Source: Bradyrhizobium sp. ORS 278 (GTDB taxonomy: Bacteria; Pseudomonadota; Alphaproteobacteria; Rhizobiales; Xanthobacteraceae). Taken from it: a stretch of DNA of 64,000 bases. This document shows positions 30,038 to 54,831 of the stretch, one piece after another. The DNA is taken from assembly GCF_000026145.1 (NCBI RefSeq), contig NC_009445.1:4898001-4962000 (forward strand), written 5' to 3'. A program made the position numbers and the translations under genes. The notes beneath the pieces were generated by a model that searched no databases, had not been told where the DNA came from, and was given only the letters and a program-made list of their open reading frames with translations. Positions within the stretch are counted from its first letter, which is position 1. Every line of letters starts with the position of its first letter.

Positions 30038-30069
30038 AAAACGATGGCCGCCGCTTGCGGCGGCCATCG
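30038..30069 (-). terminator. Intrinsic terminator of the collar-protein gene
   Basis: CGATGGCCGCCGC (30042-30054) and GCGGCGGCCATCG (30057-30069) pair perfectly over 13 bases. On the minus strand the stem is followed by TTTTCCG. It lies 11 bases beyond the stop codon at 30081, so it ends transcription of the tail-collar gene; the stem could also slow transcripts of the dehydrogenase from the other side. Confidence 0.85.
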
Positions 30070-30080
30070 GGTCCATTCCG

Positions 30081-31730
30081 CTACTTGAAGCGGATGATGT
30101 AGTCGACGTTGATGTTGACAGGCCGCGACTCCGCGTCGCCCCCCGCGACGATCTGGTGGGAGTGGTTGCCGGCAACCGTCGAGGCAGTGGTGTTCGGATT
30201 GTTCTCGGCGAGATCCCAGCCTGCGACGACGTCGATCGTGTGGGTGTCGGTGGGGATGCCCGTCACCTGATGGGTGTGATCGCCGATCGGTGTCGTCGTG
30301 AAGGGTGTGATCGGCTGGCAGGTGGTCGACTGCGCCTGGATGGCGCCCACTTTCGCCTGGCCCGCCCCCATGACGAAGTAGCCCCTGAGGTCGGGCAGGT
30401 AGAAGTTGAGATTGTCCTGCCCGAAGGTGGCCCCGATCACCTTGTAGAGCGCGGCATAGGTTGGGTCGTTCTTCTTGAGCTTTTGCCCGACGCAGGGCAG
30501 CCAGCCATCGGCCAGCAAAGAGGTCAGGTTGTCGATCGAGGTAACGTCACCGCCATAGGCCGTGACCGAGCCGATCGGCGGCGCATCGGGAATGACGTCA
30601 TTGGCGATGAACCAGTCGAGATAGATGTTGACCGGCCGCGTCTCCTTGTCGCCGCCGGTGACGCTATGGGTGTGGGCGCCCGCCTTCGTAGTGTTCGTCC
30701 AGTCGTCGGTCCATTCCATGGTGTTGTAGGCTGCGGGACCTGAGGCGCCATAGGCGGCATGGTGATCATTGGCGGGCACCAGGGCCTGAGCGTGGGTGTG
30801 GTCACCGGTGGCCGCGACGCTGATGGGGATGACGCCGTTGGCGGTCGAGTAATGCTGGGCTGAGCCCACCGCATCTCCCGTATTGCCGCCGCCCAGCAGC
30901 GCATAGCGAATGGACGCATTGGGGTCGCGGCCGGTGCCGTGGCTGGTGCCGCGCAAAAACTGCCCGCGCAGATCAGGCACGTTGAACACCGAGACCCCGT
31001 CGCCGCCGAAGTTCGAGCCGAGCGTGTTGGCGAAGGCCGGACTGCTCGCACTGATCGCCTGCGGCATGCCATTGCAGTAGATCCAGCCTGTGGGGCTCTG
31101 CGTGGCGAGGCTCGCGCCGAACGCGGCAATTGCGCCGGCCGGCGTCTGCGCGGCGGCCGGCGCGGCGCTCGCCCGGATCACCCAATAGAGCGCCGCATTG
31201 ACCGGCAGCGTCGCCGGGTCCCCGCCAGACATGGTGTGGAAGTGACCGCCCGCCGCCCCGATCGTCACCGTGGTGGACCATCGCGCCATGCTGTCGGTGC
31301 TGCCGCTCCACACCTCATGCATGTTGGTGTCGAGATGCTGATAGGCATGGAAATGATCGCCATCCTGCGCGAGAACCCAGGGATTGGTCGGAAGGGCGGT
31401 CGCACCCGCCTGAAGCGATCCGACGGCATTGCCCGTCGCGCCCCCTGGAGCGGCCGCGGTCCGCGTCCCAGCGTCGGGGTCAATGGTAGCGGTCGCCGTC
31501 GTCCCCCGCACGAATCGTCCCGTGAGGTTCGGAACGTTGAAATTGCCGCCTGATCCGCCGTGAGCGTTGCCGATCGCCGTATAGAGAGCGGCATATTGCG
31601 AGGTTGCATAGGATGAGCCGTCGCACGGCAGCCAGCCGGCGGCGATCAAGGCCGATCTAACAGTAGAGACCGAGAGATCTCCTGCGAACATACAAACAAA
31701 ACCAATGGGAAGATTGCTCGTTGAAGCCAT
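30081..31730 (-). CDS. Phage tail-collar-domain protein, three fused collar domains
   Basis: A 549-residue protein built from three copies of a phage tail collar (MdpB-type) module, about residues 7-186, 196-377 and 383-549. Each copy has a GW-x-x-C-x-G turn (32-38, 215-221, 409-415), a (V/L)P(N/D)L(T/R)G-x-F block (66-73, 251-258, 445-452) and a closing GGD...PVN element (169-178, 359-368, 530-539). Each also has two H-x-H pairs: 126/128 and 163/165; 311/313 and 353/355; 485/487 and 523/525. No signal peptide is seen, and no phage genes lie nearby. I use the ATG at 31730 (GGAGAAG upstream). The role is unknown; tail fibre, injection-system or adhesin parts are possible. Confidence 0.88.
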   Translation of the reverse strand: MASTSNLPIGFVCMFAGDLSVSTVRSALIAAGWLPCDGSSYATSQYAALYTAIGNAHGGSGGNFNVPNLTGRFVRGTTATATIDPDAGTRTAAAPGGATGNAVGSLQAGATALPTNPWVLAQDGDHFHAYQHLDTNMHEVWSGSTDSMARWSTTVTIGAAGGHFHTMSGGDPATLPVNAALYWVIRASAAPAAAQTPAGAIAAFGASLATQSPTGWIYCNGMPQAISASSPAFANTLGSNFGGDGVSVFNVPDLRGQFLRGTSHGTGRDPNASIRYALLGGGNTGDAVGSAQHYSTANGVIPISVAATGDHTHAQALVPANDHHAAYGASGPAAYNTMEWTDDWTNTTKAGAHTHSVTGGDKETRPVNIYLDWFIANDVIPDAPPIGSVTAYGGDVTSIDNLTSLLADGWLPCVGQKLKKNDPTYAALYKVIGATFGQDNLNFYLPDLRGYFVMGAGQAKVGAIQAQSTTCQPITPFTTTPIGDHTHQVTGIPTDTHTIDVVAGWDLAENNPNTTASTVAGNHSHQIVAGGDAESRPVNINVDYIIRFK

Positions 31731-32198
31731 TGCCACTTCTCCATAAGAATTGAGGAAAAATATCTGAGTAATTGTCGTCGCCTAAATTGGTAACGGCACG
31801 GGAAAACAATCAAAAATTGTGATTCATGGGAAGCCGCTACTTGTAGAACGGAAAACACTTTGTTTTTACAACCCTTGATTGATGTTGTGTGAGATGTGCG
31901 GCTTGACTTTGCCACCGGAGACGCTGCCCGCGGTTCCCGCGACGGGCTCTAACACCACGCAGCAGACGTGTCGGCACGCGCGCCACAGCCAGCAATTGTG
32001 CGCTCATGCGACTCCCTGTAATTTTCTGCGATCGATAATCGTTCGCAGTATAGGTGGGTAAGACGCTCCCCAAGGAGCGTCAAAATAGTAATGTTATAAC
32101 GTTACATAATTTGGCAGATCGGCTAACTGTCGTCCTGGTCATCGGGAACATGAGGGGACGCGGAGGCCGGCTGGCCGGTCACCGTGGTGGGAGTCGAA
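31731..32198. other. 468-base intergenic region, AT-rich, with several dyads
   Basis: Between the divergent collar and receptor genes. AT-rich near 31740-31820 and 32085-32115, and no gene is supported. Dyads seen: GCGATCGAT/ATCGTTCGC at 32028-32046, the hairpin GACGCTCC/GGAGCGTC at 32062-32081, and the palindrome at 32088-32105, described separately. Promoters of both flanking genes must lie here. Confidence 0.6.
32088..32105 (+). promoter_or_regulatory. Zur-type operator candidate upstream of the TonB receptor
   Basis: GTAATGTTATAACGTTAC is an 18-base palindrome with one mismatched pair and a TGTTATAAC core. This form resembles the operators of the zinc-uptake regulator Zur in Alpha- and Gammaproteobacteria. 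It ends 93 bases before the receptor ATG (32199), in the place expected for an operator near the promoter. It differs from Irr and Fur boxes of rhizobia. The assignment rests on similarity to known consensus shapes only. Confidence 0.5.
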
Positions 32199-42082: not shown

Positions 42083-43501
42083 TCACGGGACCAAGCGCGC
42101 TCGCTCTTGCATCTTGGTCGTCTCGAGCGGCCGGTGCAACGCGCGGATGACCGAATACAGGGTTTGCGCGTAGAGCAGAGATCCAACGCCATAGGCGACC
42201 ACATAGGCCACGATGAACGTGTCTGTTGTCCAGTTGAGCACGACCATCAGCACGCTGATCACCACCATGACCGCAAGCGTGAGACATGAGCGACGAGCGA
42301 GCTCCTCAAATCGTCCGATTCCGATCAAGACGATCTGACACGTCGTCTGGACGAGCATGAACGCGAACATCGCGCAGATCGCAATCCGCATGACGGGCGA
42401 GACGATCCCGGCATGGTTGAGGATGACGCCGAAAATCTGCTCGCCGAACCCCGCAATCGCGATGATTCCCGCCAGCATCGGCAGCAGCCCGATCAAGACG
42501 CCTTTCGCGGTCGCGCGCATCAGGCCGACGGCATCCGCATGGTGCATCGCCCGGGTCTGCTGCGGAAGAACGGATTCCGCGCCGATCAGATAGCTCAGGA
42601 CCGCAAACCGCGTGACCTTGTAGAACATGTCGAAGGTGACGACGGCCGCTGCATCACGCGATGCAGCGAGCAGATAATAAGGAAAGACGCCGATGACGAA
42701 ATCGGATAGTGAGAGCAGCACGGTGGCGCCGACCCCGCGGATTTCCGCGCGCAGCAGCGTAAGACCCCTGCGCAGCGCACCTTTCCGCGGCGCAAAGCCG
42801 TGAATGCGAGCGAGCCAGAGCAATGCGCAGATCGCCACACTCCAGACGCCCAGGCTGATCGCGCTGTACGACTCGAATGACAGACCAGTCAGCATCGCCA
42901 GCGTCACGGCCAGCGATGCCAGGCGGCGGACCAGATCGACGGCCTCGGTCCAGAAGAATCCGTCGCGCGCGTTGATGGCCACCCGAAGCGCCATTCGCGG
43001 CAGCGCGCAGACCGCGCCGGCAAAGATCAGAAGATATGGGACCGCGTAGATGCCGACCTGAAGGATGCCGGACATCAGCGCAAGTCCCAACACCAGGATG
43101 GCCACGAGTCCGACCGCGATGTAGAGCGTGACGATCGTGACCACCAGATCCTGATCGTCAGGGGTTGCGGCGCGTGCACCGGATTCCGCGAGATAGTGCG
43201 ACCTGAGCTTGAAGAATGTCAGTCCGGTGATACCGAGATCGCTCTGGACGACCAGCGCTGCCACCGCGAGCAGGCTCGCAATGACCGCATAGGATTCGAT
43301 CCCGATTGACCGCACGAGCACATAGGCCAGCAGGAAGTTCGTGACGGCGTTCAGCGCGGAGTTGGCCCCCTTCAGCGCGACGAGCCCAAACGCACCGTTC
43401 GATAATCGCAGAAGCCGATGCAAGAGCGCGCTGCGATCGGCTGCAATGGAACTCCCGCTGCTCTCGCCGCTGACGAGCACCTCATCACTGCTTGTCGTCA
43501 T
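42083..43501 (-). CDS. Wzx-like polysaccharide flippase
   Basis: A 472-residue inner-membrane protein with about 12-14 hydrophobic helices, including LKGANSALNAVTNFLLAYV at the start, as in the oligosaccharide flippases of the MATE-like MVF/PST group. It should flip the lipid-linked repeat unit. The ATG overlaps the stop of the Wzy-like gene by four bases (43498-43501), so Wzz, Wzy and Wzx form one transcript. The N-terminal 25 residues are polar, as usual. The sequence identity of such flippases is low, so the name rests on fold and context. Confidence 0.8.
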   Translation of the reverse strand: MTTSSDEVLVSGESSGSSIAADRSALLHRLLRLSNGAFGLVALKGANSALNAVTNFLLAYVLVRSIGIESYAVIASLLAVAALVVQSDLGITGLTFFKLRSHYLAESGARAATPDDQDLVVTIVTLYIAVGLVAILVLGLALMSGILQVGIYAVPYLLIFAGAVCALPRMALRVAINARDGFFWTEAVDLVRRLASLAVTLAMLTGLSFESYSAISLGVWSVAICALLWLARIHGFAPRKGALRRGLTLLRAEIRGVGATVLLSLSDFVIGVFPYYLLAASRDAAAVVTFDMFYKVTRFAVLSYLIGAESVLPQQTRAMHHADAVGLMRATAKGVLIGLLPMLAGIIAIAGFGEQIFGVILNHAGIVSPVMRIAICAMFAFMLVQTTCQIVLIGIGRFEELARRSCLTLAVMVVISVLMVVLNWTTDTFIVAYVVAYGVGSLLYAQTLYSVIRALHRPLETTKMQERARLVP

Positions 43502-44781
43502 CGGCTGACAATCATCTCGTTTCGCAGGTCCGGCGCGATCCTGCTTGCCGTCTCGGATACGGCTTTGGAATTCTCATTGATCTGATCGTTGCCGAGCCAG
43601 GCCACCAGTGCGGCCAGCTGCATCAGGACTGACGGGTTGAGGAGATAGCCGCCGAGAAAGAGATAGGTGTAGCCGACGGCAAACCGGACACCGCGAGGCC
43701 CGCGGCCGATCGTCAAATACAGCAGCCGTGAATAGAGCACGGCTCCGAGCAGTCCGTACTCATAGATGACCTTCCCCCAGGTCGGATCGAACGCATAGAA
43801 TGACAGCAGACGGAACTCCTCCTGAACGGTTCCGGGCCCACGACCGATGAGAAACGTGGCGTCGGTTGCGAACACCACGCCTCGCAGCACCCGAAACATC
43901 GAGATGAACCGCGCCCATCCGCTCGACTGCGTGTCGGAAAACTCACCAAGGCGTCTTGTGAACGCGTCCAGTGAGAGAACATCGCCGAAGGCGATCACGA
44001 TCAAGCCGAGCACGACTGCGACGACGAACAGCCGCATATGACCGTGACGCACGAAATAGAACGGCAGGAACAGCGCCAGCATCGTGAGGCCGGTCCCTGA
44101 ATAGCTGCACAGCAGACCGGCTGCCAGCAGCGCCATGCGCGAGGCCCTCGCCGCCAGCGTCAGCTCGGCCACCAGGGCGATGGCCAGGAACTGGCAGAAG
44201 AAGGACGGCTCCAGGAAGACGACCCCATTGCTCTTGTACACCGGCGACGACCAATAGAGCGGGATCAGAGAATTGTAGCCCGACACCGTGACGCTGTCCG
44301 GCAGGTGCTTGTCCAGGAAGAACGCAACATCAGCGCCCACGGCAAACTGCCCGAGGAACTGCGCGATGCCGACGGCCGCGCCGATGCAGCCGACGGTCGA
44401 GAGCAGGCGCAGGATCCTGTCGTAAGGCATCCCGGTCGCAACACAGCGGAACACCAGAGGCGCCTGCGCCACCACAAGGAAGCCGAGTGACAGCGCCGAG
44501 ACGTGCGAACTCGGCGACAGCGCTGTGCTGACGGCCCCAAGAATGACGAAGAGCGCGTACCAGGCAAATGCGCTCGTATTGATCTCGAGCCGGCCTGCGA
44601 TGAACCCCACCGCGGTCACTGCAGGGAAGATCAGAAGGTTCAACGGATAGAGGCCGCCCGTGCCGGGCAGCGCGATCTTCTGAAGGGCAACCGATGAAAG
44701 CAGCGCGATCGCGCAGATCGCGAAGACGGATTGCGCGTCGGAGCGGGCTGCGGGAGCAACCGATGTGAGCGTCATGACCAT
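43498..44781 (-). CDS. O-antigen/EPS polymerase-like membrane protein (Wzy)
   Basis: A 427-residue polytopic membrane protein with about 10-12 helices and a large periplasmic loop (around residues 160-200, PDSVTVSGYNSLIPLYWSS), as in Wzy/WaaL-type polymerases. It probably polymerises the repeat units on the periplasmic side. I use the ATG at 44781, which has AAGG upstream; an ATG six bases later is equally possible. It follows the Wzz-like gene after 28 bases and overlaps the flippase gene. Wzy proteins diverge widely, so context carries most weight. Confidence 0.75.
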   Translation of the reverse strand: MVMTLTSVAPAARSDAQSVFAICAIALLSSVALQKIALPGTGGLYPLNLLIFPAVTAVGFIAGRLEINTSAFAWYALFVILGAVSTALSPSSHVSALSLGFLVVAQAPLVFRCVATGMPYDRILRLLSTVGCIGAAVGIAQFLGQFAVGADVAFFLDKHLPDSVTVSGYNSLIPLYWSSPVYKSNGVVFLEPSFFCQFLAIALVAELTLAARASRMALLAAGLLCSYSGTGLTMLALFLPFYFVRHGHMRLFVVAVVLGLIVIAFGDVLSLDAFTRRLGEFSDTQSSGWARFISMFRVLRGVVFATDATFLIGRGPGTVQEEFRLLSFYAFDPTWGKVIYEYGLLGAVLYSRLLYLTIGRGPRGVRFAVGYTYLFLGGYLLNPSVLMQLAALVAWLGNDQINENSKAVSETASRIAPDLRNEMIVSR

Positions 44782-44809
44782 CGACCTTCGCCGGAACGGG
44801 CGGCGCGCG

Positions 44810-46270
44810 TCACGCGAGTGGCGCCTGCCTGCGCAGCCGGTAGTCCGCCATGGCCGGCGACGGGCTCCAGCCGCCCTGCTCGGCGTCGATGTCGTCGTCG
44901 AAGCGTTCCTCCCGCTCGGCATAGAGCCGGCGCTCCCAAGCCCGACGACGTCGAACACGAATGGCTTCGAGCATCACGCAGGTGGCGGCGCCTCCCACCA
45001 GACCGATGACCCCTCCCAAAGCGAGGAAGAGCGGCTTCGGTGGAAACACCGGCTCTGTCGGACTCGTGGCGGATTGGGCGATTTTGACGTTGGACAGCTT
45101 TTCGCTCGCATCCCAATCCGCATTCAGCTGGGCTTCCGCCGCACGACCGACATGCGCTTCCATCACTTTCGAGACCTGATCGAGCTGATCCTTGAGACGG
45201 TTGAATTCAGCGGCGATCGATGAGAGCTCGCTCAGCTTGCGGCCGACATCCGCAACCGACTCCGTCTGCGCCTTCTCCAGCGAACGCAAGCCGACGATCT
45301 CCGAATTGAGGTTGACCAGCGATTGCGCGGTCTCCTGGAACACGCGCACCAGCAATAGCGGCGATTCGTTCGCCGGCACCTTGTTGGAATCCGTCAACGC
45401 ATCCGAATTGCCGCCCGGCACATTCTGCTTTGGCCCCGTAATCTCGCTCGGCAAAGAGATCCGACGTCGAAGCTGGGTCAGCGTGTTCTGGAACGTCGCG
45501 GCTTGGGCCTCCTTCTCCGCAATCGCACCGCGCGTTTTTTCCAGCGCCGCGGTAGCGTTGTCGCGGCGTGCGAGCGCAAGCTCGATCTCCTGCCCCACCG
45601 AATAGGTCGAATGCTGGGCCGCAAATGCGCTGAGCTCCGCCGACGCGCGCTTGTACTCGTCGAGATAACGTGACGCCTGTTGTCGGAAAAAGGCGGGCGC
45701 CGCCGCATTTCCGCTCAGATCGGCCTGCCGCTGCAGGAAGTCACGGACAACGAGCGTCAGGAACTGCTCTGCGACCTTCGGATCCTCGTGCCGGAAGGTG
45801 AGAGAGAGAATCTGAGAATCCTTTTCAAGCGTGACAGCGAGCCGCTTCTTGACCTTCGACAACGCTCGATCAGCATCCGTGCGTGCATCATCCGATCGTT
45901 CCCGCCAGAACGGCGCGGTGATTTTTGAAACCCTGTCGATCCACTCGGGCGGAATGACGGTTCGCCATGCAGCCGGCTGCTTCTGATCGGGGAACAATCG
46001 CGCGGCGCCGAATTCGCTGATCGCCTGTCGAAGCACATCCTCGCTGTTAATGATGTAGATCTGAGAATTCAGCTGATAGCGCAGCGTGTCGGGAAATTGC
46101 GATTGCTGCCGTTGCGCCCGATCGAGCGTGGTCATCAACAGCGCTTCCGACTGATACAGCGGCGTGACCGTCATGGTGAACGCCGTGACGCCAGCCACGA
46201 TCAGGATGAAGACCGTCAGGAAAGCGAGCTTTCGATCCCACACGATCTTCCCAAGTGCGTTGAACGACAT
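44810..46270 (-). CDS. Chain-length determinant (Wzz/PCP-type) protein
   Basis: A 486-residue polysaccharide co-polymerase. TM1 is about residues 14-35 and TM2 about residues 415-440 (FLALGGVIGLVGGAA), with a large, helix-rich periplasmic domain between them, including coiled coils near residues 200-290. A cytoplasmic tail of about 45 residues is charged, but the usual BY-kinase domain is absent. The ATG at 46270 follows GAGG. It leads the minus-strand run Wzz, Wzy, Wzx and diverges from the GH26-like gene. Confidence 0.85.
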   Translation of the reverse strand: MSFNALGKIVWDRKLAFLTVFILIVAGVTAFTMTVTPLYQSEALLMTTLDRAQRQQSQFPDTLRYQLNSQIYIINSEDVLRQAISEFGAARLFPDQKQPAAWRTVIPPEWIDRVSKITAPFWRERSDDARTDADRALSKVKKRLAVTLEKDSQILSLTFRHEDPKVAEQFLTLVVRDFLQRQADLSGNAAAPAFFRQQASRYLDEYKRASAELSAFAAQHSTYSVGQEIELALARRDNATAALEKTRGAIAEKEAQAATFQNTLTQLRRRISLPSEITGPKQNVPGGNSDALTDSNKVPANESPLLLVRVFQETAQSLVNLNSEIVGLRSLEKAQTESVADVGRKLSELSSIAAEFNRLKDQLDQVSKVMEAHVGRAAEAQLNADWDASEKLSNVKIAQSATSPTEPVFPPKPLFLALGGVIGLVGGAATCVMLEAIRVRRRRAWERRLYAEREERFDDDIDAEQGGWSPSPAMADYRLRRQAPLA

Positions 46271-46428
46271 GCGGGCCTCGCTGTTGTTGGAGTCTGGGCG
46301 GGGTGCGATCAGGCATGTGGCAAGTGCGAAATGATGGCTTGGTTCCAAACCGATTGCGCACGCCTTGTTGAAATCGGGCCGGATGGCTCGCTTCGGACCG
46401 TGCCGCAAATGAAGGGATCGGACACGTG

Positions 46429-47349
46429 ATGCCGCCACGCTCCTCGCTCGCGATTCTGCTGTTGCTATGCTCTACCGTTGCCTGCTTCGCGGGCAATTCC
46501 GCACTGGGCGCCTATGTCGGGAATGATCTGTCCGAATTGAAGAGGTTCGAGACCTGGCTTGGCCGCCCAGTCGATCAGATCGTCGCTCACACTGGCCGGG
46601 CCAACTGGAAGGACTGGGTCGACAGTGTGCGGTGGTCCATCGGCCTATGGTCACCGCTCGACAAACCGATCTGCTGGACCATTCCGCTGTTTGCCGACCG
46701 TGGCTCGCTGTCGGACGCTGCGGCCGGAACCTACCAGGACCATTACGAACAGGCGGCCCGCATGCTGGCGCAAACACGCCCCCGTGACGTCGTCATCTAT
46801 GTGCGGATGGGAGAAGAGTTCAACGGCGACTGGATGCCATGGGCCGCCGCGGGACATGAGCAGGACTTCATCCGAGCCTATCGCAACTTCGTCAAGGCGT
46901 TCCGCTCGGTGTCCGGCCGGTTTCGTTTCGAATGGAACGTCAACGTTCGCGAAACCCGCATGAACGCCGCGGATGCCTATCCCGGAAATGACTACGTCGA
47001 TGTGATCGGAATGGACTTCTATTACAATACCAAGTGGAACCCGACCGATCCCGACAAGGCATGGACCGAGATGGTCGAGGGCCCCTACGGACTGAAATGG
47101 CTGGAAGACTTCGCGGCCGCGCATGGCAAGCCGACGGCCTACCCCGAGTGGGGTGTCAATTCCGACACTGCGGGGCCTTACATCGCGAGAGCAGCGCAAT
47201 GGTTTGCTGACCATCATGTGCTGTATCAGAGCGTCTGGAACTCGAATGATGCGTTTCCGGGCAAGCTGAGCGACGGCCGATATCCAGCAGCCGCGACCGC
47301 CTATATCCGGGCATTTGGAGCCGCGGCAGCCCCGCAGCACTTTCCCTAG
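46429..47349 (+). CDS. Secreted glycoside hydrolase, GH26-like
   Basis: A 306-residue protein with a Sec signal (residues 1-22, LLLLCSTVACFAG) and a barrel domain of the beta-mannanase/GH26 type. The acid/base Glu sits in VRMGEEFNGDWMPWA (about residue 130), and the nucleophile is probably the Glu in YPEWGVNSD (about residue 240). It probably trims or depolymerises the polymer in the periplasm or outside the cell. A GTG three bases before the ATG is an alternative start. Its stop overlaps the opposite-strand stop of the ExoA-like gene (CTAG). Confidence 0.8.
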   Translation: MPPRSSLAILLLLCSTVACFAGNSALGAYVGNDLSELKRFETWLGRPVDQIVAHTGRANWKDWVDSVRWSIGLWSPLDKPICWTIPLFADRGSLSDAAAGTYQDHYEQAARMLAQTRPRDVVIYVRMGEEFNGDWMPWAAAGHEQDFIRAYRNFVKAFRSVSGRFRFEWNVNVRETRMNAADAYPGNDYVDVIGMDFYYNTKWNPTDPDKAWTEMVEGPYGLKWLEDFAAAHGKPTAYPEWGVNSDTAGPYIARAAQWFADHHVLYQSVWNSNDAFPGKLSDGRYPAAATAYIRAFGAAAAPQHFP

Positions 47350-48359
47350 GGAGCCGCCCGTTCGGACACCGCCACTGGCGGCGACCTTGAAAATCGCGCT
47401 CGCAGGATGCGATGACTGAAGCCGATCGCCCAGCTGTGATGCATGATCATGGCGGCAGGGCCGGCTGTGCAGCCGGCGAGATCGCGGTTGCTGACGGCAA
47501 GCCAGCCACCGGCGACGAGACACGCGGTGATATACAGCAGCGACGGCGCAACAAACAGCCAACTGACGCTGATGGCCAATGCAGGTCCCATCAGGTTCAT
47601 TCCCAGCACACCCAATGGCAGCACCTGCCGGATCTTGGGCCGCTGGCGGTGCTTGATCATGGTTTTCGCGCGGCCGGAGCCGTGGTTGAAATACTGACGC
47701 GCGAGCGAGCTGAAAGTGCTGCGCGGAAAGTAGGTGACGGCAAGCTCCGCGGATAGCCAGATCTTCGCGCCGGCATTCCGGAACCTGACGTCGAGCTCCG
47801 CGTCCTCGTTATGCGTGAAGCTTTCGTCATAGCCGCCGACGGCAAGGAATGACCTCCGCAGAAACGCAGCATGATGTCCATGCTCGACATAACGGGACGT
47901 AGCCCCGACCCGATGCAACGCACCGCCGTTGCCCAAACGGCTGTTCTGCGCGGCGGCGATGCCGCGTTGGAGGACGCCTGATCCGCGCGTGCGCATGGGA
48001 ACCACGACCGATGCAGCATCACGCTCGCGCAGCTCCTCGACCAGGCCAACAACAAAGCCCTCCGGATATTCGGCGTGCGAATCCGCGCGGATGATGATCT
48101 CGGCGCGGGCCATGATGGCCCCCCGGTTCACGGCGGCGGATTGATAGCGCAGCGGATTGTGTTCCAGTCGGATTCGCCCATCGAGCGCGCCTAACTGGGT
48201 CACGATCGACACAGTGCGGTCCGTGCTGCCGCCGTCGAGCACGATCAGCTCGTAATCGACATGGTCCAGTCCGGCCGCCAGGGAGCGCAAGGCCCTCTCG
48301 ATGTATTTCTCCTCGTTCAATGTTGGAACGATGATAGAGACTGAGGGTTCAGCTGGCAT
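47346..48359 (-). CDS. Glycosyltransferase family 2, ExoA-like
   Basis: A GT2 enzyme of about 337 residues. The nucleotide-sugar site is SIIVPTLNEEKYIERALRS, with LDGGSTDRT and RADSHAEYP for metal binding, and ESFTHNEDAELDVRFR at the acceptor side. The C-terminal part has three hydrophobic helices (about residues 240-330), as in membrane-linked ExoA of succinoglycan assembly. I use the ATG at 48359, just upstream of MPAEPSVSIIV; an ATG at 48386 would add nine residues. It is transcribed away from the aldo/keto reductase gene. Confidence 0.87.
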   Translation of the reverse strand: MPAEPSVSIIVPTLNEEKYIERALRSLAAGLDHVDYELIVLDGGSTDRTVSIVTQLGALDGRIRLEHNPLRYQSAAVNRGAIMARAEIIIRADSHAEYPEGFVVGLVEELRERDAASVVVPMRTRGSGVLQRGIAAAQNSRLGNGGALHRVGATSRYVEHGHHAAFLRRSFLAVGGYDESFTHNEDAELDVRFRNAGAKIWLSAELAVTYFPRSTFSSLARQYFNHGSGRAKTMIKHRQRPKIRQVLPLGVLGMNLMGPALAISVSWLFVAPSLLYITACLVAGGWLAVSNRDLAGCTAGPAAMIMHHSWAIGFSHRILRARFSRSPPVAVSERAAP

Positions 48360-48473
48360 GGAACGATCCCGAAGCGGAACTGACATGAGTATGCGCAACG
48401 CGCACCGATGCGTCGTGTCCGCGGGACACGATGCTCTCGGCCCAATGCCGATCCGCCAGACCGGTTCCTATCA

Positions 48474-49319
48474 ATGACGACTCTCGACGTGACCGGACAG
48501 CGGCTTGGGCTGGGCTGCGCGCGACTGGGCTCTGTTCTTGGGCGCGATCGCGCCGATGCGCTCAGGCTCGTGCAGACTGCACTCGATCGAGGCATTCGCT
48601 TCTTCGACACCGCCGACATCTATGGACAGGGCGAGAGCGAACGGCTGCTTGGCGCAGCGCTCGACGGCCGGCGCAAGCAGGCGACCATCGTCACCAAGGC
48701 CGGACAGTATTTCCCGCTGTGGATGCGCGCAGCGCAGCCGCTCAAGAGCGTGATCGCGCCCCTGATCCGGCGGAGCGGCGGCGGACGCCAGCTCGTTGCG
48801 AAGATGCGCGACGCACCGCTGCCGCAAGATTTCACCGGCAGCTATCTGCGCGCCCGCATCGAGGCGAGCCTCGGCCGCCTCCGGACGGACTATGTCGACG
48901 TCATGCTGCTGCACAGCCCTTCCGAAGAAATCATCATCGACGGCGAGGCCATGGGCCATCTCGAGAGGATCAAGGCTGCAGGAAAGGCCGTCGCCATCGG
49001 CGTGTCCTGCGAAGACGTCGAATCGGCCATACTCGCGCTGAATGACCCGCGCATCGAAGCGGTCGAGCTCCCGCTCTGGCCGATGACCGACCGCACCGAT
49101 CTCTTTCTCCACCTGGCGCAACAACGCGGCATTCTCGTGATCGGTCGCGGACTGATGCGGGTCACCAGCCCGGACAACGACGCTAAACGATGGCGGGCCA
49201 TCCTGGCCGCGGCCCTGGCGCGGAGCGAGCTCGGCCGTCTGCTGATCGGCACAACCCGTGTGGCGCATCTACTCCAAGTGCTCGATGCCATTCAAGATCA
49301 GGATGAACCGTGTTCATAG
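48474..49319 (+). CDS. Aldo/keto reductase
   Basis: A 281-residue NAD(P)H-dependent AKR with a complete catalytic tetrad: Asp45 and Tyr50 in FFDTADIYGQG, Lys75 in IVTKAGQ and His147 in VMLLHSPS. It has a (beta/alpha)8 barrel and no signal peptide. The start at 48474 follows an upstream open stretch with no recognisable protein. The next gene, a GMC oxidoreductase, overlaps its end by ten bases, so both are translated from one message. In a polysaccharide locus, reduction of a keto sugar is a plausible role, but not shown. Confidence 0.85.
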   Translation: MTTLDVTGQRLGLGCARLGSVLGRDRADALRLVQTALDRGIRFFDTADIYGQGESERLLGAALDGRRKQATIVTKAGQYFPLWMRAAQPLKSVIAPLIRRSGGGRQLVAKMRDAPLPQDFTGSYLRARIEASLGRLRTDYVDVMLLHSPSEEIIIDGEAMGHLERIKAAGKAVAIGVSCEDVESAILALNDPRIEAVELPLWPMTDRTDLFLHLAQQRGILVIGRGLMRVTSPDNDAKRWRAILAAALARSELGRLLIGTTRVAHLLQVLDAIQDQDEPCS

Positions 49320-50983
49320 ATGGACGGCGAATCGCGGCAGGGACCACGCTGGACGCGGAGATCTGCATCATCGGCGGCGGTCCCGCAGGCATCGTGATCG
49401 CGCGCGAATTGCTGGCGACGTCGCGTTCGGTCATTCTGGTCGAGAGCGGCTCCTGGCGGCCAGATAAGCTGATCCAGGCGCTGAATGCCGCCGAGCTTGC
49501 CGCTGGCAGTCGTCATCCGCCCCCCGAGATGTACCGCGAAAGACGCTTCGGCGGATCATCGACGATCTGGGGTGGCCGCTGTGTCCCGCTGTCGCCCAGC
49601 GATTTCGAGCGCCGACCCTATGTCGCCAATAGCGGGTGGCCGATCTCCTACGACGAGCTCGCCCCGTTTTATGCAAGGGCCCTGACTTATTGCGAGGCCG
49701 GCGAGTTCGTATTCGATCCGGTTTGTCTCAAAGGTCCAGCCGATCTTGTCGAGGGACTCGAGGACGATGATATTTCGGTCGGTCTGGAGCGCTTCAGTCC
49801 GCCCACCAATTTCGGGCGCCGCTTCAAGGCTGATCTCGTCCGCTCGTCGCTGCACCGGATCCTGACCCAGACCACCGTCACGCGATTACAGACGGACAGT
49901 TCCGGTCGGCGGATCGCCGCGCTGGACTGTGCGACCGTTGCCGGCAATTCTTTCCGCATTCACGCGAAGACCATCGTCCTCGCAGCCGGCGGACTCGAGT
50001 CAGTGCGCCTTCTGGCGGCCTCCAACCAGGTGAATCCCGCGGGCCTCGCCAATTCGAGCGGCGCTCTCGGCCGCTACTACATGTCGCACCTGGAGGGCAC
50101 GCTCGGATGCCTGCAAGTCGCGAACGGCCGCCGGGTGGCGTGGAACTTCGCAAGAACATCCGATGGCATCTATGCGAAGCATCATTTGCGGTTGTCCGAG
50201 CCGGTGAAGAACCGTCATCAGCTGCGAAACATGATTTTCCGGCTGCATCACGCCAATCCGATGAACCCCGACCATCGCGATCCCGTGCTGTCGTTGATGT
50301 ACATCGCGAAGCGCTTCGTGCTTCCGGAATACCGGCGAAAGATCACCACCGTGGAGCTGGAGGCGCTCGATCGCCTGCCTCACGGAAGCACCCTCGCCGT
50401 TCGGCATGTCGCCAACATCGCCGGCAATCCGTGGCCGCTCGCGAAGTTTCTGGGCTCCTGGGTCTACAGGCGGCATGCGCGCTATCGGCGCGTCCCCTAT
50501 GTGGCGCTCCACTCGAAAACCGGCTGCTACCCGCTCGACTACAATGCCGAGCAGACGCCGCTTTATGACAGCAGGCTCTCGCTGACAGGCGAGACAGATC
50601 GGTTCGGAATGCCAAAGCTGCACATCGATTGGCGGGTCTGTCCAGGGGACATGGCCTCGATTGCGGCCAGCTATCGCGAGTTACAACGGGTGTTGGACCG
50701 GACCGGCGTCGCCAAAGTGCTGTTCGACGACGCCACCCTCAACGAGAGTGCCAGCCATCCGACCGCCGTGGGCGGCCATCATATCGGCACGGCACGGATG
50801 AGCGATGATCCGAGCCAGGGCGTCGTGAATTCGAACTGTCGAGCCCATGACGTCGATAATCTCTACATCGCCAGCAGCGCCGTGTTCCCAACCGGCGGCT
50901 CGGCGAATCCCACACTGACGATCGTCGCTCTCGCCATTCGACTGGCCGAGCACATGGCGTCCGAGATGCGGAGTTCCAGATGA
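49310..50983 (+). CDS. GMC-family FAD oxidoreductase
   Basis: A 557-residue flavoprotein of the glucose-methanol-choline family. The FAD-binding motif is ICIIGGGPAGIVIAREL (residues 18-34). The second region shows RRFGGSSTIWGGR (about residues 78-90), where an Asn/Ser element binds the flavin. The C-terminal part has GGHHIGTARM with the active-site His and SANPTLTIVALA. It starts with GTG at 49310, with AGGATGAACC upstream, inside the end of the aldo/keto reductase gene. The oxidised substrate is unknown. Its stop overlaps the next glycosyltransferase start. Confidence 0.88.
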   Translation: MFIDGRRIAAGTTLDAEICIIGGGPAGIVIARELLATSRSVILVESGSWRPDKLIQALNAAELAAGSRHPPPEMYRERRFGGSSTIWGGRCVPLSPSDFERRPYVANSGWPISYDELAPFYARALTYCEAGEFVFDPVCLKGPADLVEGLEDDDISVGLERFSPPTNFGRRFKADLVRSSLHRILTQTTVTRLQTDSSGRRIAALDCATVAGNSFRIHAKTIVLAAGGLESVRLLAASNQVNPAGLANSSGALGRYYMSHLEGTLGCLQVANGRRVAWNFARTSDGIYAKHHLRLSEPVKNRHQLRNMIFRLHHANPMNPDHRDPVLSLMYIAKRFVLPEYRRKITTVELEALDRLPHGSTLAVRHVANIAGNPWPLAKFLGSWVYRRHARYRRVPYVALHSKTGCYPLDYNAEQTPLYDSRLSLTGETDRFGMPKLHIDWRVCPGDMASIAASYRELQRVLDRTGVAKVLFDDATLNESASHPTAVGGHHIGTARMSDDPSQGVVNSNCRAHDVDNLYIASSAVFPTGGSANPTLTIVALAIRLAEHMASEMRSSR

Positions 50984-52239
50984 CGCCATCGATTCTCTGG
51001 CTGGCGCGAACGCTGCCGCTGCCGCTGAACGCCGGTGACCGGATCTACTCGGCGCACCTCGCCGGCGCGGTCGCGCGCCAAGGCAGCCGCGTCGTGTTCC
51101 TCGGTCTTGCGAACCCCGACGATCCGAGCGGCTCGCTGGACGAGCTCGAGCGTCGGGTCCAGTGGAAGCTCGTTCCCGGCGCGCCCAACCCCAAGCTGCT
51201 CGGTCTCGCTAGCCGACTGCCGATGGTCGGTGCTCGGTTCTGCACCAGGAGCTATCGGGATGCGATTACGCGCGAGCTCCGCGAAGCGGACTATGATGCC
51301 GTGGTGCTCGATCAGTACGGAATGAGCTGGGCGATCCGCCATGTCCGGAACATCGCACGCCGGCCGCCCATCCTGATCCACGTGTCGCACGACTTCGAGA
51401 CGCGCGTCACCGATCAGATCGCCCGTAACTTCGCTGGCGATCCCGTACGACGATTTCTGCTCAGGCAAAATGCACGCAAGACGGCCGTCGCCGAGACGGA
51501 TCTTGCCAGCGCGAGCCGGCTTCTCGTGACCTTGACCGATGAGGACCGTGCGTCGTTCGCGGCCATCAATCCCTCGCTGGGACACGTCGTCCTGCCACCA
51601 GGTCATGCGGGCCGCCGCGCGCCTCCGCGCGCCATCGACACGACGGTTCCCAGACGCGCGATCATCGTCGGTTCATTTAGCTGGATCGCCAAGCAGATCA
51701 ATCTCGAGCGCCTGCTGAGCGCGGCCGACGGAATATTCCCGCAAGCATCGATCGAATTGCATGTCGTCGGAATGGTCCCGGAACCTCTGCTATCCCGGCT
51801 GAGGCAGCGTTTTCCCTGGGTCGCATTCAAAGGCTACGTCGACGATCTCGGCGAGGAACTACGCAACGCGCGGCTCGCACTGGTGCCCGAGGAGATCGGC
51901 GGCGGCTTCAAGCTCAAGATCCTCGACTACATCTTCGCGCGCGTACCGGTTGCCGCTGTCGCATCCGCGCTCGGCGGTATTCCGGCGCGCCTGAAAGATC
52001 AATTTTTGATCGAAGATGACGTTGCGAAGCTTCTTCGGACGGTTGCCGACACGATCGATGACGTTGGCTGCCTAAATCGAATGCAGACTGGCGCATTCGA
52101 CATCGCCGATGGCCTGTTCGACTGGGATCTGAACGGACAACGCCTCCTCGATGGGCTCACGCAGGCTCTGCGGGAGCGTTCGCGCAAAGGCATCAGCAAC
52201 GCGCTGACCGGGCTTACGGAGCCGGCGCCTTCGATCTGA
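50980..52239 (+). CDS. Glycosyltransferase, GT4-like
   Basis: A 419-residue GT-B enzyme. The N-terminal half has LWLARTLPLPLNAGDRIYSA, typical of GT4-type transferases that take nucleotide sugars. The C-terminal half has IIVGSFSWIAKQINLERLL and the EEIGGGFKLKILDYI element (about residues 305-320), equivalent to the E-x7-E-like donor motif. The start overlaps the GMC gene by four bases (ATGA), so AKR, GMC and this gene form one unit. It should add a sugar to the lipid-linked repeat unit; the sugar is unknown. Confidence 0.84.
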   Translation: MTPSILWLARTLPLPLNAGDRIYSAHLAGAVARQGSRVVFLGLANPDDPSGSLDELERRVQWKLVPGAPNPKLLGLASRLPMVGARFCTRSYRDAITRELREADYDAVVLDQYGMSWAIRHVRNIARRPPILIHVSHDFETRVTDQIARNFAGDPVRRFLLRQNARKTAVAETDLASASRLLVTLTDEDRASFAAINPSLGHVVLPPGHAGRRAPPRAIDTTVPRRAIIVGSFSWIAKQINLERLLSAADGIFPQASIELHVVGMVPEPLLSRLRQRFPWVAFKGYVDDLGEELRNARLALVPEEIGGGFKLKILDYIFARVPVAAVASALGGIPARLKDQFLIEDDVAKLLRTVADTIDDVGCLNRMQTGAFDIADGLFDWDLNGQRLLDGLTQALRERSRKGISNALTGLTEPAPSI

Positions 52240-52474
52240 AGATACGACCTCAGCTCGCGTGTTCCAGCAGATCGCACGCGTACTTACAACTACACTTGAC
52301 TTCATCGATGCCGCGTTCCTCCTTGCAGCAATGAGGCCATTGCGTGACGATTTTCGGCCGACATCAAGATCATCAGGAACAACTGAGCAAATTAGAGAAA
52401 GATTGGAACGATACCCGGCAGAGGACTTTTGTTCGCGTTGCAACAACAAACAGCAGTGCGTTGGAGTCTGAGAT

Positions 52475-53158
52475 ATGGACGGAATGGCCAAGGCGACTGG
52501 TGCAGATGAACAATCGATCTATGTGTTCGTAACAGCAGATCGTCCGACTGGACTTACATCGAAGCGCGTCACGGACATCGTGCTCGCCCTCTGGGGCATC
52601 ATTCTCCTCGCCCCCCTCCTCCTCATCTGCTGCTTCGCAATCGCCTGCTTCTCTCCCGGTCCGGTGATGTTTCGTCACCGCCGCGTCGGCTTCAACGGCA
52701 AGTCGTTCGACTGTTTGAAATTCCGCACCATGGCGACCGATGCGTCGGAACGCCTGCGTCGGCATCTCGAGTCCGATCCGGCCGCGGCGGCCGAATGGCA
52801 GACGACGCGAAAGCTGCGCAAGGATCCCCGCGTCACGCCGATCGGCGCCCTCTTGCGAAAGTCCAGCCTGGACGAACTGCCGCAGCTCTTCAACGTCCTA
52901 AGGGGCGACATGAGCATCGTCGGACCGCGGCCGATCACCGAGGAGGAATTGGAGCGCTATTCCGATGCGGTTCACGCCTATTTCTCTTGCCGTCCGGGGA
53001 TCACCGGCCTCTGGCAGGTGAGTGGTCGCAGCACGACCACGTTTCAACGGCGCGTGGTCCTCGACAGCTACTATGCTCATAACTGGTCGATGATCCTCGA
53101 CGCGAAGATCATCATGGCGACGGTTCCGGCCGTGTGCTTCTCAAACACGGCCTATTAG
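52475..53158 (+). CDS. ExoY-like initiating sugar-phosphate transferase
   Basis: A 227-residue polyprenyl-phosphate hexose-1-phosphate transferase. The N-terminal helix is DIVLALWGIILLAPLLLICC (about residues 33-52). The catalytic part shows KFRTM, RKSSLDELPQLFNVLRGDMS and SIVGPRP. It loads the first sugar phosphate, probably galactose or glucose, on undecaprenyl phosphate, and so starts the repeat unit. It stands after a 235-base gap that must hold its promoter. Length and the missing N-terminal domain match ExoY rather than the longer WbaP type. Confidence 0.93.
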   Translation: MDGMAKATGADEQSIYVFVTADRPTGLTSKRVTDIVLALWGIILLAPLLLICCFAIACFSPGPVMFRHRRVGFNGKSFDCLKFRTMATDASERLRRHLESDPAAAAEWQTTRKLRKDPRVTPIGALLRKSSLDELPQLFNVLRGDMSIVGPRPITEEELERYSDAVHAYFSCRPGITGLWQVSGRSTTTFQRRVVLDSYYAHNWSMILDAKIIMATVPAVCFSNTAY

Positions 53159-53481
53159 CAGCCTCGAAGCCGCGGCCGGCCCCCCACGGCGGGCCTCGCG
53201 AATCGGCAAAATGATGCTAAATGTGGCGTCATGGTGATTGGAGGATGCGCAATACGTGTGCTCATCTTCCGGTCCGGTAGCATGTCGCGAGTTCCATTCG
53301 CGGCCAGACCTTGCCCCGCGTCAAAGCGGGACCTTGCATTTGATGCGACAGCTCACGCGATATGACGATAGTGTCATGGTCTCACTTGCGACCGGAGCAT
53401 TTCCGCCTTGAGCACGGCTTGCGTATCGACCACGAGCAGCGATCGCTGGACGTCCCCGATGCATTCACCCGGGACGCCGAG
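53159..53481. other. 323-base stretch between exoY-like gene and small membrane protein
   Basis: No gene is supported. A frame open from ATG 53362 runs into the small membrane-protein gene but lacks a ribosome site. A G/C-rich stretch, GGCCGGCCCCCCACGGCGGG, follows the exoY-like stop and could pair weakly; no T-tract is present. Confidence 0.45.
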
Positions 53482-53805
53482 ATGAGCTATCTGACGGCCG
53501 GGTTGGCATTGTCCGGAGCCGCGATCGGCTTCGCGTTCCGCTGGCACGCTCTCCTGCCCATCGTTGTCCTCGTCCCCCTAATCGTCATCATCTTCTCGGT
53601 GTCGCGCGGCTCGAGTTTCGAAACGACGGCAGTGGGTATCCTCATCGCTGAAGCCGGTCTCCAGGGCGGCTATGTGGTCGGATTGCTGTTGCGCCTGCTG
53701 GTGCCTTTGATCAAGCCTCGCTCGGTTGCGGCAGGTCCGCGCGAGACCCGGGCCGCGGGCAAGGACGACCAGCGGCACCCTGCGCCGCCTCCAAGCGGAG
53801 CGTGA
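53482..53805 (+). CDS. Small membrane protein after exoY, possibly ExoX-like
   Basis: A 107-residue protein from the ATG at 53482, with three hydrophobic segments (MSYLTAGLALSGAAIGFAF, LLPIVVLVPLIVIIFSV and a third around LIAEAGLQGGYVVGLLLRLL) and a polar, Pro-rich tail. Size, membrane content and position next to the ExoY-like gene resemble the ExoX-type repressors of exopolysaccharide synthesis in rhizobia, but the sequence match is too weak to assert. An upstream ATG at 53362 would add 40 residues without a ribosome site, so I did not use it. Confidence 0.5.
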   Translation: MSYLTAGLALSGAAIGFAFRWHALLPIVVLVPLIVIIFSVSRGSSFETTAVGILIAEAGLQGGYVVGLLLRLLVPLIKPRSVAAGPRETRAAGKDDQRHPAPPPSGA

Positions 53806-53841
53806 GTCGCTCGAGGCCGGCCCTGCACGGAAGGCAAAGGC

Positions 53842-54636
53842 TCATTTCCAGGCATAGAGCTTGAACTCTGGCGTGTCGGCTCCGCCTGGCTTGCGAAGAA
53901 CCCACAAATTATAGGCTGCGAGATCCCTCACGCCGATGGCATGGAGCAAGGTGTCGTATAAATAGGACGCGAGATAGAACGGAACAAAGAATTCGAGGTA
54001 GGAACTGCTGTTGTATCCGGGCAAATGATAGACGGTCTGGAAGCCCGACTTCTGTACCAGGTTACGAAATGCCGAGTAGTTGGTCCGATCGTAGTGCGCG
54101 GTGAAGCCCAGATGCTCGGCGGTCTCTCCCATGGATGTCGCCAGCAGCCGCTTCGAGGTGGCTTTCGGTAAGAGCCGGTTGGCGACGGCAAACGGGGCAT
54201 AGCGTCCGGGGAACTGCGCGATGAAATAGCCTCCGGGGCGCAGCGCCTCGAAGGCATTGTCAAGGAAGCGCTGGTTGTCGCTGAAATGCTCGATGCCGGA
54301 GCTGATCATCACCAGATCGATGGATTCGCGAGCGACCGGAATTCTCTCGACCGCATCGCACTCGATCCTCTCGTCGAGCAAAAGATTGTCGGCCATTTCT
54401 GCGCCGTCGATATCCACGCCGATCAGCTTGATTCCGTACCAGCTCTTGTAATGCAGCGGAAAGTGCCACTGCTTTCCCGCGCCGACGTCGAGCACCGTTC
54501 TGGTCTCCGGATGCGAGAGCAGGATGGCGCCGATCTTGTGGTAGGCGGCGAACACATTCGCCTCGTGATAGTGGTCAGGAGTGATCGCCCGCGAAAGGCG
54601 TCTGTTCAGCGCGAAGAACGAGCCTGAATGTCCCAC
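53842..54636 (-). CDS. Class I SAM-dependent methyltransferase
   Basis: A 264-residue protein with the SAM-binding fold. Motif I is TVLDVGAGKQWHF (about residues 49-61), the acidic end of strand 2 is IGVDIDG, and motif IV/post is SSGIEHFSDN. EALRPGGYFIAQFPGRY follows. The C-terminal half is aromatic-rich (YNSSSYLEFFVPFYLASYLYD). The start is GTG at 54636, with GGGAG six bases upstream; the longer frame is rejected. It probably methylates a sugar, lipid or protein group; the locus suggests the polysaccharide, by inference only. Confidence 0.78.
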   Translation of the reverse strand: MGHSGSFFALNRRLSRAITPDHYHEANVFAAYHKIGAILLSHPETRTVLDVGAGKQWHFPLHYKSWYGIKLIGVDIDGAEMADNLLLDERIECDAVERIPVARESIDLVMISSGIEHFSDNQRFLDNAFEALRPGGYFIAQFPGRYAPFAVANRLLPKATSKRLLATSMGETAEHLGFTAHYDRTNYSAFRNLVQKSGFQTVYHLPGYNSSSYLEFFVPFYLASYLYDTLLHAIGVRDLAAYNLWVLRKPGGADTPEFKLYAWK

Positions 54637-54831
54637 GTGAATCTCCCGTGATTGCTGATGCGGAACACTCAACGTCGGACGAGCCCGGATGCTCCGAAAA
54701 GAATGATGTTCGGCCGGGAATGTGTGATTCGTGTCTTCTCCCAACCGGGCAACGCTTCATCACGTTCGGCCCGACGTCCAAGCTGTCGGCGAGGTCTCAG
54801 CCCAAGCGACGACGGATCAGAGGCGACCAGG

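What the first reader, a model, noticed from the sequence alone, without database searches (positions are those of the whole stretch)
30081..31730. Isolated protein with three fused tail-collar domains and six His-x-His pairs
Each collar copy has the same landmarks and two H-x-H pairs, 37-42 residues apart in each copy. In phage T4 gp12, a trimer, His-x-His from three chains bind one metal. Three copies in one chain, with no phage neighbours, could fold as a single-chain pseudo-trimer with two stacked three-fold metal sites. The gene also has its own terminator and an AT-rich upstream region.
Basis: partly seen in the sequence, partly recalled or inferred. Interest (0 to 1): 0.7.

Follow-up and report, generated by a model that had tools for sequence, protein, structure and literature searches.

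The report
Three-in-one phage tail-tip protein
A bacterium carries a stand-alone gene in which three copies of a phage tail-tip module, normally three separate chains, are joined into one protein that probably folds as a lopsided single-chain trimer held by metal-binding histidines.

Summary
It holds three Pfam Collar domains (E 4e-46) and six His-x-His pairs, spaced 37, 42 and 38 residues within copies. It is the only collar gene found in its 7.46 Mb genome. Full-length relatives are rare: one in a MAG filed as cyanobacterial (66% identity) and two in Burkholderia arboris (54 and 53%). All six His-x-His are invariant in these four proteins, as is one further tip His per unit. The tips are conserved by position but differ between positions. 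In the tree the family sits among phage collar proteins. Independent support for a three-part unit: in a Pfam survey of 299 genomes the 150 listed hits form 47 single, 5 paired and 31 triple clusters and none larger. Gene triads keep three paralogue types; in 35 of 37 all three members share one His-x-His column. A virophage trio is a demonstrated 1:1:1 heterotrimer (PMC12724248). Two other lineages apparently fused three collars separately. A single-chain, asymmetric pseudo-trimer is the best reading. AlphaFold gave good collar cores but no reliable needle or tip (pTM 0.41), so the shared axis and metals remain unproven. New variant of a known kind.

The parts
30081..31730 (-). gene of the three-collar protein, 549 aa, including the stop codon
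31149..31730 (-). unit 1 (residues 1-194): collar, out-strand, tip, return strand
   Evidence: Pfam stretch 10-74; domain alignments; blocks of the collar core at mean pLDDT 69-90
30603..31148 (-). unit 2 (residues 195-376); the copy matched to T4 gp12 by phmmer (1ocy, E 1.5e-6)
30084..30602 (-). unit 3 (residues 377-549); lacks the DPDA...R segment of units 1 and 2
31347..31355 (-). unit 1, first His-x-His (residues 126-128)
31236..31244 (-). unit 1, second His-x-His (residues 163-165)
30792..30800 (-). unit 2, first His-x-His (residues 311-313)
30666..30674 (-). unit 2, second His-x-His (residues 353-355)
30270..30278 (-). unit 3, first His-x-His (residues 485-487)
30156..30164 (-). unit 3, second His-x-His (residues 523-525)
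31317..31319 (-). unit 1 tip His138, in a column that is His in all 12 domains of the family
30762..30764 (-). unit 2 tip His323, same spacing from the first His-x-His
30240..30242 (-). unit 3 tip His497, same spacing from the first His-x-His
30047..30061 (-). terminator-like stem-loop followed by TTTT, downstream of the gene
   Evidence: 3 found in the region, 1.4 expected by shuffling
31736..31742 (-). Shine-Dalgarno-like GGAGAAG, 5 bases before the ATG
   Evidence: read from the sequence
31731..31900 (-). AT-rich upstream region, 40% GC

Best explanation
The protein is a phage-type tail-tip (collar plus metal-pinned needle) trimer built from one chain. An ancestral one-collar protein, which works as a homotrimer in phages, was tripled and fused head to tail. 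The three units pack around one pseudo-threefold axis, because each unit starts and ends in the collar, so linkers of about 5-10 residues can pass from one unit to the next. The first His-x-His of the three units would hold one metal ion (six His) and the second His-x-His a second ion further along the needle. With the units fused, each tip was free to diverge, giving one asymmetric tip made of three different, conserved loops. It most likely acts as a stand-alone binder (lectin- or adhesin-like) of a constant ligand, probably a surface glycan such as LPS, as gp12, gp37 and the virophage heterotrimer do. Shown here: three homologous units, invariant His pattern in four proteins, phage-type ancestry, tip conservation, and the rule of three in related genes. 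Inferred: the single tripling event, the shared axis, metal binding, glycan binding, and release from the cell by an unknown route (no signal peptide seen by eye).
For: Three Collar domains in one intact frame. All six His-x-His invariant among four proteins; the other three share 66, 54 and 53% identity with the window protein; the sites fall in two columns common to the 12 domains. With a profile rich in phage relatives, the first His-x-His column aligns with the HKH of T4 gp12, and gp37 is matched too. Collar clusters in 299 genomes, 150 listed hits: 47 single, 5 paired, 31 triple, 0 larger; one of the five pairs turned out to be a frame with three collar matches and four stayed pairs. Triad members cluster by gene position in a tree of 123 domains: 23 changes against a shuffled mean of 58.8, 0 of 200 as low. 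In 35 of 37 triads all three members carry His-x-His at one column. Two-plus-one fusions (L034, L035, L038) and two other three-collar frames (L136, L137). Virophage trio: 1:1:1 heterotrimer by native PAGE and co-purification, binds Synechococcus (PMC12724248: abstract, passages and first part of Results). In gp37 the collar-type domain is made of both ends of the chain, with the needle as an insertion (PMC6957217 passages). Tip columns specific to position: 12 of 48 against 4 of 128 before the first His-x-His, Fisher p 4e-5. Collar cores and return strands at block-mean pLDDT 66-90; best PDB fold matches are gp12 and gp37.
Against: The structure model leaves the three cores without a confident mutual placement (pTM 0.41) and the needles and tips unresolved (His-x-His of units 1 and 3 below pLDDT 50, of unit 2 about 50-60); a second job with a two-row alignment failed (pLDDT 27.5). 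With a profile of the family's own domains the first His-x-His did not fall on the gp12 HKH, because these units have extra residues before it. The two other three-collar frames L136 and L137 have no His-x-His, so fusion and metal are not tied together. Four true gene pairs exist. In the tree the 12 units are not one clade: the phage protein L132 falls among them (0% of 200 bootstrap trees with one clade), so one tripling event is not shown. No neighbour is common to the host genomes. Phage frames with two collars in one chain exist (L057, L069), so tandem collars alone do not prove a pseudo-trimer.
Confidence: 0.62

Rival explanations
1. The chain is a homotrimer subunit: three 549-aa chains assemble, and unit 1 of one chain packs with unit 1 of the others, and so on, giving three separate metal-pinned heads joined by linkers.
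For: gp12 and gp37 are homotrimers (gp37; gp12: recalled). Two-collar phage chains occur, presumably as homotrimers: 4 of 91 collar-bearing frames had two profile hits, of which L057 and L069 look real and L068 and L128 look like one split domain.
Against: Does not explain why listed collar clusters stop at three, why 2+1 fusions occur, or why the three units keep different tips.
Confidence: 0.2
2. It is a detached phage part: a tail-fibre tip used by a prophage or tailocin elsewhere in the genome.
For: The family lies inside phage collar proteins in the tree, with L132, L080 and L119 nearest.
Against: No part that would attach to a baseplate precedes the first collar (it starts at residue 10). 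No other collar gene in the genome. None of 51 phage records with a hit covers 80% of the protein; viral-contig scans with the full protein found no relative. No phage gene was noticed beside the relatives (L004 and L005 read by eye; five L005 proteins and one L004 protein scanned).
Confidence: 0.08
3. It targets or assists a secreted enzyme or toxin, as a binding module that acts in trans.
For: In B. arboris two such genes flank a 1217-aa protein with two laminin-G-like domains and a PLD-like domain. Other collar genes sit by an RHS-repeat protein (L054) or TIG-repeat proteins (L029, L033, L042), or are fused to RTX-like repeats (L136, by eye).
Against: The window and the stretch held of L004 have no relative of the PLD protein; the rest of those genomes was not searched for it. 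Neighbours differ in every host.
Confidence: 0.1

Closest known systems
Phage T4 gp12 short tail fibre (PDB 1ocy, 5iv5)
   Same: Collar fold: 1ocy matched with E 1.5e-6 by the protein alone, 3.8e-16 by the domain profile and 7.3e-26 by the profile with phage relatives; in the last, His-x-His aligns with gp12 HKH; gp12 entries are the top fold-search hits.
   Different: gp12 has one collar per chain and hangs from a baseplate by a long shaft as a homotrimer (recalled); here three collars per chain and no shaft.
Phage T4 gp37 long tail fibre tip (PDB 2xgf)
   Same: Collar-type domain split by an inserted needle with His metal sites; matched at E 5.8e-10. That His-x-His lie on out-going and returning strands is partly recalled.
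   Different: gp37 has seven iron sites in a long needle (PMC6957217); here at most two His-x-His sites and a short tip.
Virophage DSLV2 tripartite tail (PMC12724248)
   Same: Three PF07484 units forming one trimer, shown biochemically.
   Different: Three genes there, one gene here; virus-borne there; the word 'metal' does not occur in that paper's text.
Bacterial collar triads annotated 'tail fiber protein' (microcystin-dependent-protein type; that name recalled)
   Same: Three units, three distinct types, one shared His-x-His column.
   Different: Separate clade (12 triad rows, 100/100), separate genes, one His-x-His column instead of two.
Single-collar phage protein in IMG/VR contig of L132
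   Same: Falls among the family's units in the tree; two His-x-His.
   Different: One collar in the 41.5 kb record, which may be a fragment, so presumably a homotrimer.

Membership tests
Pfam PF07484 Phage Tail Collar | match above the curated cut-off | tested here: met
   155.2 bits against 24, three stretches
T4 gp12-type short tail fibre | one collar per chain, homotrimer | tested here: not met
   three collars in one chain; oligomer itself not testable
T4 gp12-type short tail fibre | N-terminal shaft and baseplate attachment, phage gene context | tested here: not met
   first collar begins at residue 10; neighbours are metabolic, TonB receptor and PepSY genes
T4 gp12/gp37-type metal site | His-x-His from three units binding one ion | tested here: inconclusive
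   motif and columns conserved; aligned with gp12 HKH but not; model unusable in this part
Tripartite collar heterotrimer (virophage DSLV2) | three distinct PF07484 units in one assembly | tested here: inconclusive
   three distinct units present in one chain; assembly not shown
Tripartite collar heterotrimer (virophage DSLV2) | three consecutive genes | tested here: not met
   one uninterrupted frame
Bacterial collar triads (microcystin-dependent-protein type) | falls in the triad clade | tested here: not met
   the 12 triad rows in the tree are one side of a 100/100 branch, the 12 fused-family domains on the other

The most novel reading that the evidence does not exclude
A natural single-chain pseudo-trimer whose fusion let one tail-tip evolve three different, fixed tip loops around an axis with two six-His metal sites and a third, open three-His site (His138, His323, His497), so that the tip became a composite receptor pocket or even a catalytic metal site instead of a fast-changing phage receptor binder.
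Probability: 0.13. Interest if true: 0.85.

Novelty: new variant of a known kind. Interest (0 to 1): 0.62.

Why it matters
Phage tail tips of this kind are trimers, usually of identical chains, so every tip loop comes in three equal copies. A one-chain version breaks that symmetry and would be a test case for how homotrimers become asymmetric. The wider result, that bacterial collar genes in the survey occur mostly singly or in threes and that triad members keep three types, gives a direct prediction (1:1:1 heterotrimers) for a widespread group annotated only as 'tail fiber protein' in the records seen here.

Tried and rejected
Prophage or tailocin locus: rejected as unlikely, because none of the 19 window proteins scanned gives a named virion gene and the collar gene is the only one found in the genome.

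Fusion of a neighbouring triad of the common bacterial type: rejected, because the family lies among phage collars, away from the triads.

A viral carrier of the fused form: two scans of viral contigs with the full protein gave no relative (2 stretches; 42 stretches).

In its alignment the columns shared by all 42 rows lie in unit 2, so units 1 and 3 were covered essentially by L004 alone. Job 2, on L004 with two rows, was useless. The second structural aligner was not installed, and model coordinates are not in the Python box, so no His-His distance could be measured.

Synteny: the dehydrogenase next door is in 21 of 21 same-genus genomes, own included. The PepSY gene on the other side is in 17 of 21; by eye, where both lie on one contig in the other genomes they are at least 22 kb apart. 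So the collar gene lies at an edge of variable sequence. None of 10 other same-genus genomes matched the collar protein, though three (G024, G086, G105) have one other collar each. An exact empty site was not worked out.

Literature: searches listed no paper on three collar domains in one chain. That covers this open library only, and most listed papers were seen only as listings.

Changed after checking: the pLDDT of unit 2's His-x-His, the count of real two-collar phage frames, the disagreement, and the place of L132 are corrected in this version.

Full report
Observation. Window 30081-31730, minus strand, encodes a 549-aa protein with three Phage Tail Collar domains and six His-x-His pairs, two per unit, 37, 42 and 38 residues apart. 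It begins almost directly with a collar and has no shaft. By eye it has no signal peptide (no tool was used for that). It is the only collar gene found in a 7.46 Mb genome. Flanks scanned: TRAP solute-binding protein, P-loop NTPase, glyoxalase-type protein and 3-hydroxyisobutyrate-type dehydrogenase on one side; TonB receptor, PepSY protein and histidine kinase on the other.

Rarity. Full-length relatives: L004, a MAG contig labelled cyanobacterium (66% identity), and two genes in Burkholderia arboris, L005 (54 and 53% identity in the alignment). In the phylum, 2 of 398 genomes match at E up to 1e-15 (protein query): the own genome and one single collar (G427). In the order, 1 of 297 matches (profile, E up to 1e-25): the own genome. 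In the phylum of L004's genome, 2 of 292 match at E up to 1e-20: that genome and one single collar. In one search, 37 of 198 same-family genomes (own included) match at E up to 1e-3, but apart from the own gene only weakly (best E 7.8e-16). Of 51 phage records with a hit none covers 80% of the protein. The label of L004 may be a binning error.

Family anatomy. Across four proteins all six His-x-His are invariant. Aligning the 12 domains: both His-x-His columns are invariant, and so is one further His, ten residues after the first pair (His138, His323, His497). Between the two pairs lies the tip. Within a position the tip is somewhat more conserved than the part before the first pair (mean identity 0.61-0.67 against 0.54-0.57; the part after the second pair has 0.52-0.69). 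Between positions it is less alike (0.26-0.31 against 0.33-0.39 before and 0.35-0.47 after). Position-specific columns: 12 of 48 in the tip, 4 of 128 before the first pair, 5 of 28 after the second (Fisher p 4e-5 for tip against the part before, 5e-4 against both other parts). So the fused proteins hold three different, fixed tips, unlike what one expects of a phage receptor binder under an arms race (inference, from four proteins).

Ancestry. In a careful tree of 79 domains the 12 fused-family domains group with three viral collar proteins: L132 inside (97/84), L080 next (100/83), L119 outside (97/71, not starred). Twelve rows from four bacterial triads form a separate clade (100/100). L132 comes from a 41.5 kb virus record in which one collar was found and has two His-x-His. 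The simplest history is triplication and fusion of a one-collar phage-type protein, but because L132 falls among the units a single triplication is not shown.

Rule of three. A Pfam search of 299 genomes of the phylum found collars in 72. The 150 listed hits (listing cut) fall into 83 clusters: 47 single, 5 paired, 31 triple, none larger. The window's gene is one of the 31, and G022, G378 and G389 give two each. One pair proved to be a frame with three collar matches on closer look (L137); the other four stayed pairs. In 20 regions picked for several hits, 18 held three units and 2 held six; three of the 18 are two-plus-one fusions (L034, L035, L038). Of 18 further multi-hit regions, 16 held three genes and 2 a three-collar frame (L136, L137). 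Triad domains cluster by gene position: 23 changes against a shuffled mean of 58.8 (0 of 200 as low) in 41 triads, the fused ones included (a quick tree, 57 of 120 inner branches open). In L138, L140 and L143 the first two genes appear swapped in type. At one alignment column all three members carry His-x-His in 35 of 37 triads; the exceptions are L136 and L137. A phage record also has a triad (L059).

Precedent. The three consecutive collar proteins of virophage DSLV2 co-purify as a complex of about 55 kDa, look fibrous in negative stain and bind Synechococcus (PMC12724248: abstract, passages and first part of Results seen). In T4 gp37 the collar-type domain consists of residues 811-881 and 1010-1026, with the needle inserted between them, and seven irons line the needle (PMC6957217, passages). 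Six His-x-His in an Alteromonas phage fibre were read as potential iron sites (PMC11705849, passages). That gp12 binds zinc is recalled.

Link of the His-x-His to gp12. With the profile that contains 40 phage fragments the first His-x-His column falls on the HKH of 1ocy. With the profile of the family's own domains and two singles it does not, since the family has extra residues before the pair. The equivalence is therefore likely but not certain.

Structure. AlphaFold2 on the chain with 41 other rows gave mean pLDDT 59.5 and pTM 0.41. Blocks of the collar cores and of the return strands 181-186, 372-376 and 543-547 are at mean pLDDT 66-90. The His-x-His of units 1 and 3 lie in stretches below 50, those of unit 2 at roughly 50-60. 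Foldseek: T4 gp12 entries at E 2.7e-5 to 1.5e-4 and gp37 at 9.4e-4, with poor overall superposition (TM by query 0.18 or less). The collars are therefore confirmed by fold, and their mutual placement is not.

Mechanism and confidence. Single-chain pseudo-trimer: 0.62. Two metal sites, given that: about 0.7 (inference). Glycan or LPS binding as the role: about 0.4 (by analogy only). Export route: unknown.

Verdict. Real, well conserved in the four known copies, rare, and a new variant of a known kind.

Noticed in passing
L031, L032, L034, L035, L037, L038, L040, L044-L048, L145, L146, L150: Bacterial collar triads often lie near a lasso-peptide-like cassette: an asparagine-synthase-type cyclase in 15 of 40 collar regions, an HprK-related kinase in 12, a B2-like protein in 7. 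The NCBIfam match of the B2 protein tested is above its cut-off; those of the cyclases and kinase are below theirs. A paper search joining these terms listed 12 papers, none with 'phage tail collar'.
   Followed up: partly
L136 7568-9760: Another frame with three collar matches, without His-x-His, followed by repeats that read like RTX calcium-binding repeats (by eye), 730 aa.
   Followed up: partly
L137 6043-7068: A very divergent 341-aa frame with three partial collar matches and no His-x-His.
   Followed up: partly
L029, L033, L042: Collar triads beside large TIG/IPT-repeat proteins, two of them (L033, L042) with autotransporter barrels.
   Followed up: partly
L005 7986-15457: Two three-collar genes flank a 1217-aa protein with two laminin-G-like domains and a PLD-like domain; the second gene's frame has an N-terminal extension of unknown kind.
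   Followed up: partly
L132 2992-3582: A single-collar gene in a virus record, between genes that read like a prohead protease and a major capsid protein (by eye), an odd place for a tail protein.
   Followed up: no
L059 1719-3471: Phage contig with three adjacent collar genes of 195, 195 and 193 aa.
   Followed up: partly
L054 311-5803: A single collar gene directly behind an RHS-repeat protein in a genome of the phylum of G841.
   Followed up: no
42083-54744: Stretch of lower third-position GC (about 0.72-0.79) that includes a family 2 glycosyltransferase, possibly an acquired polysaccharide region.
   Followed up: no
L039, L040: Regions with six adjacent collar genes, that is two threes.
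   Followed up: no
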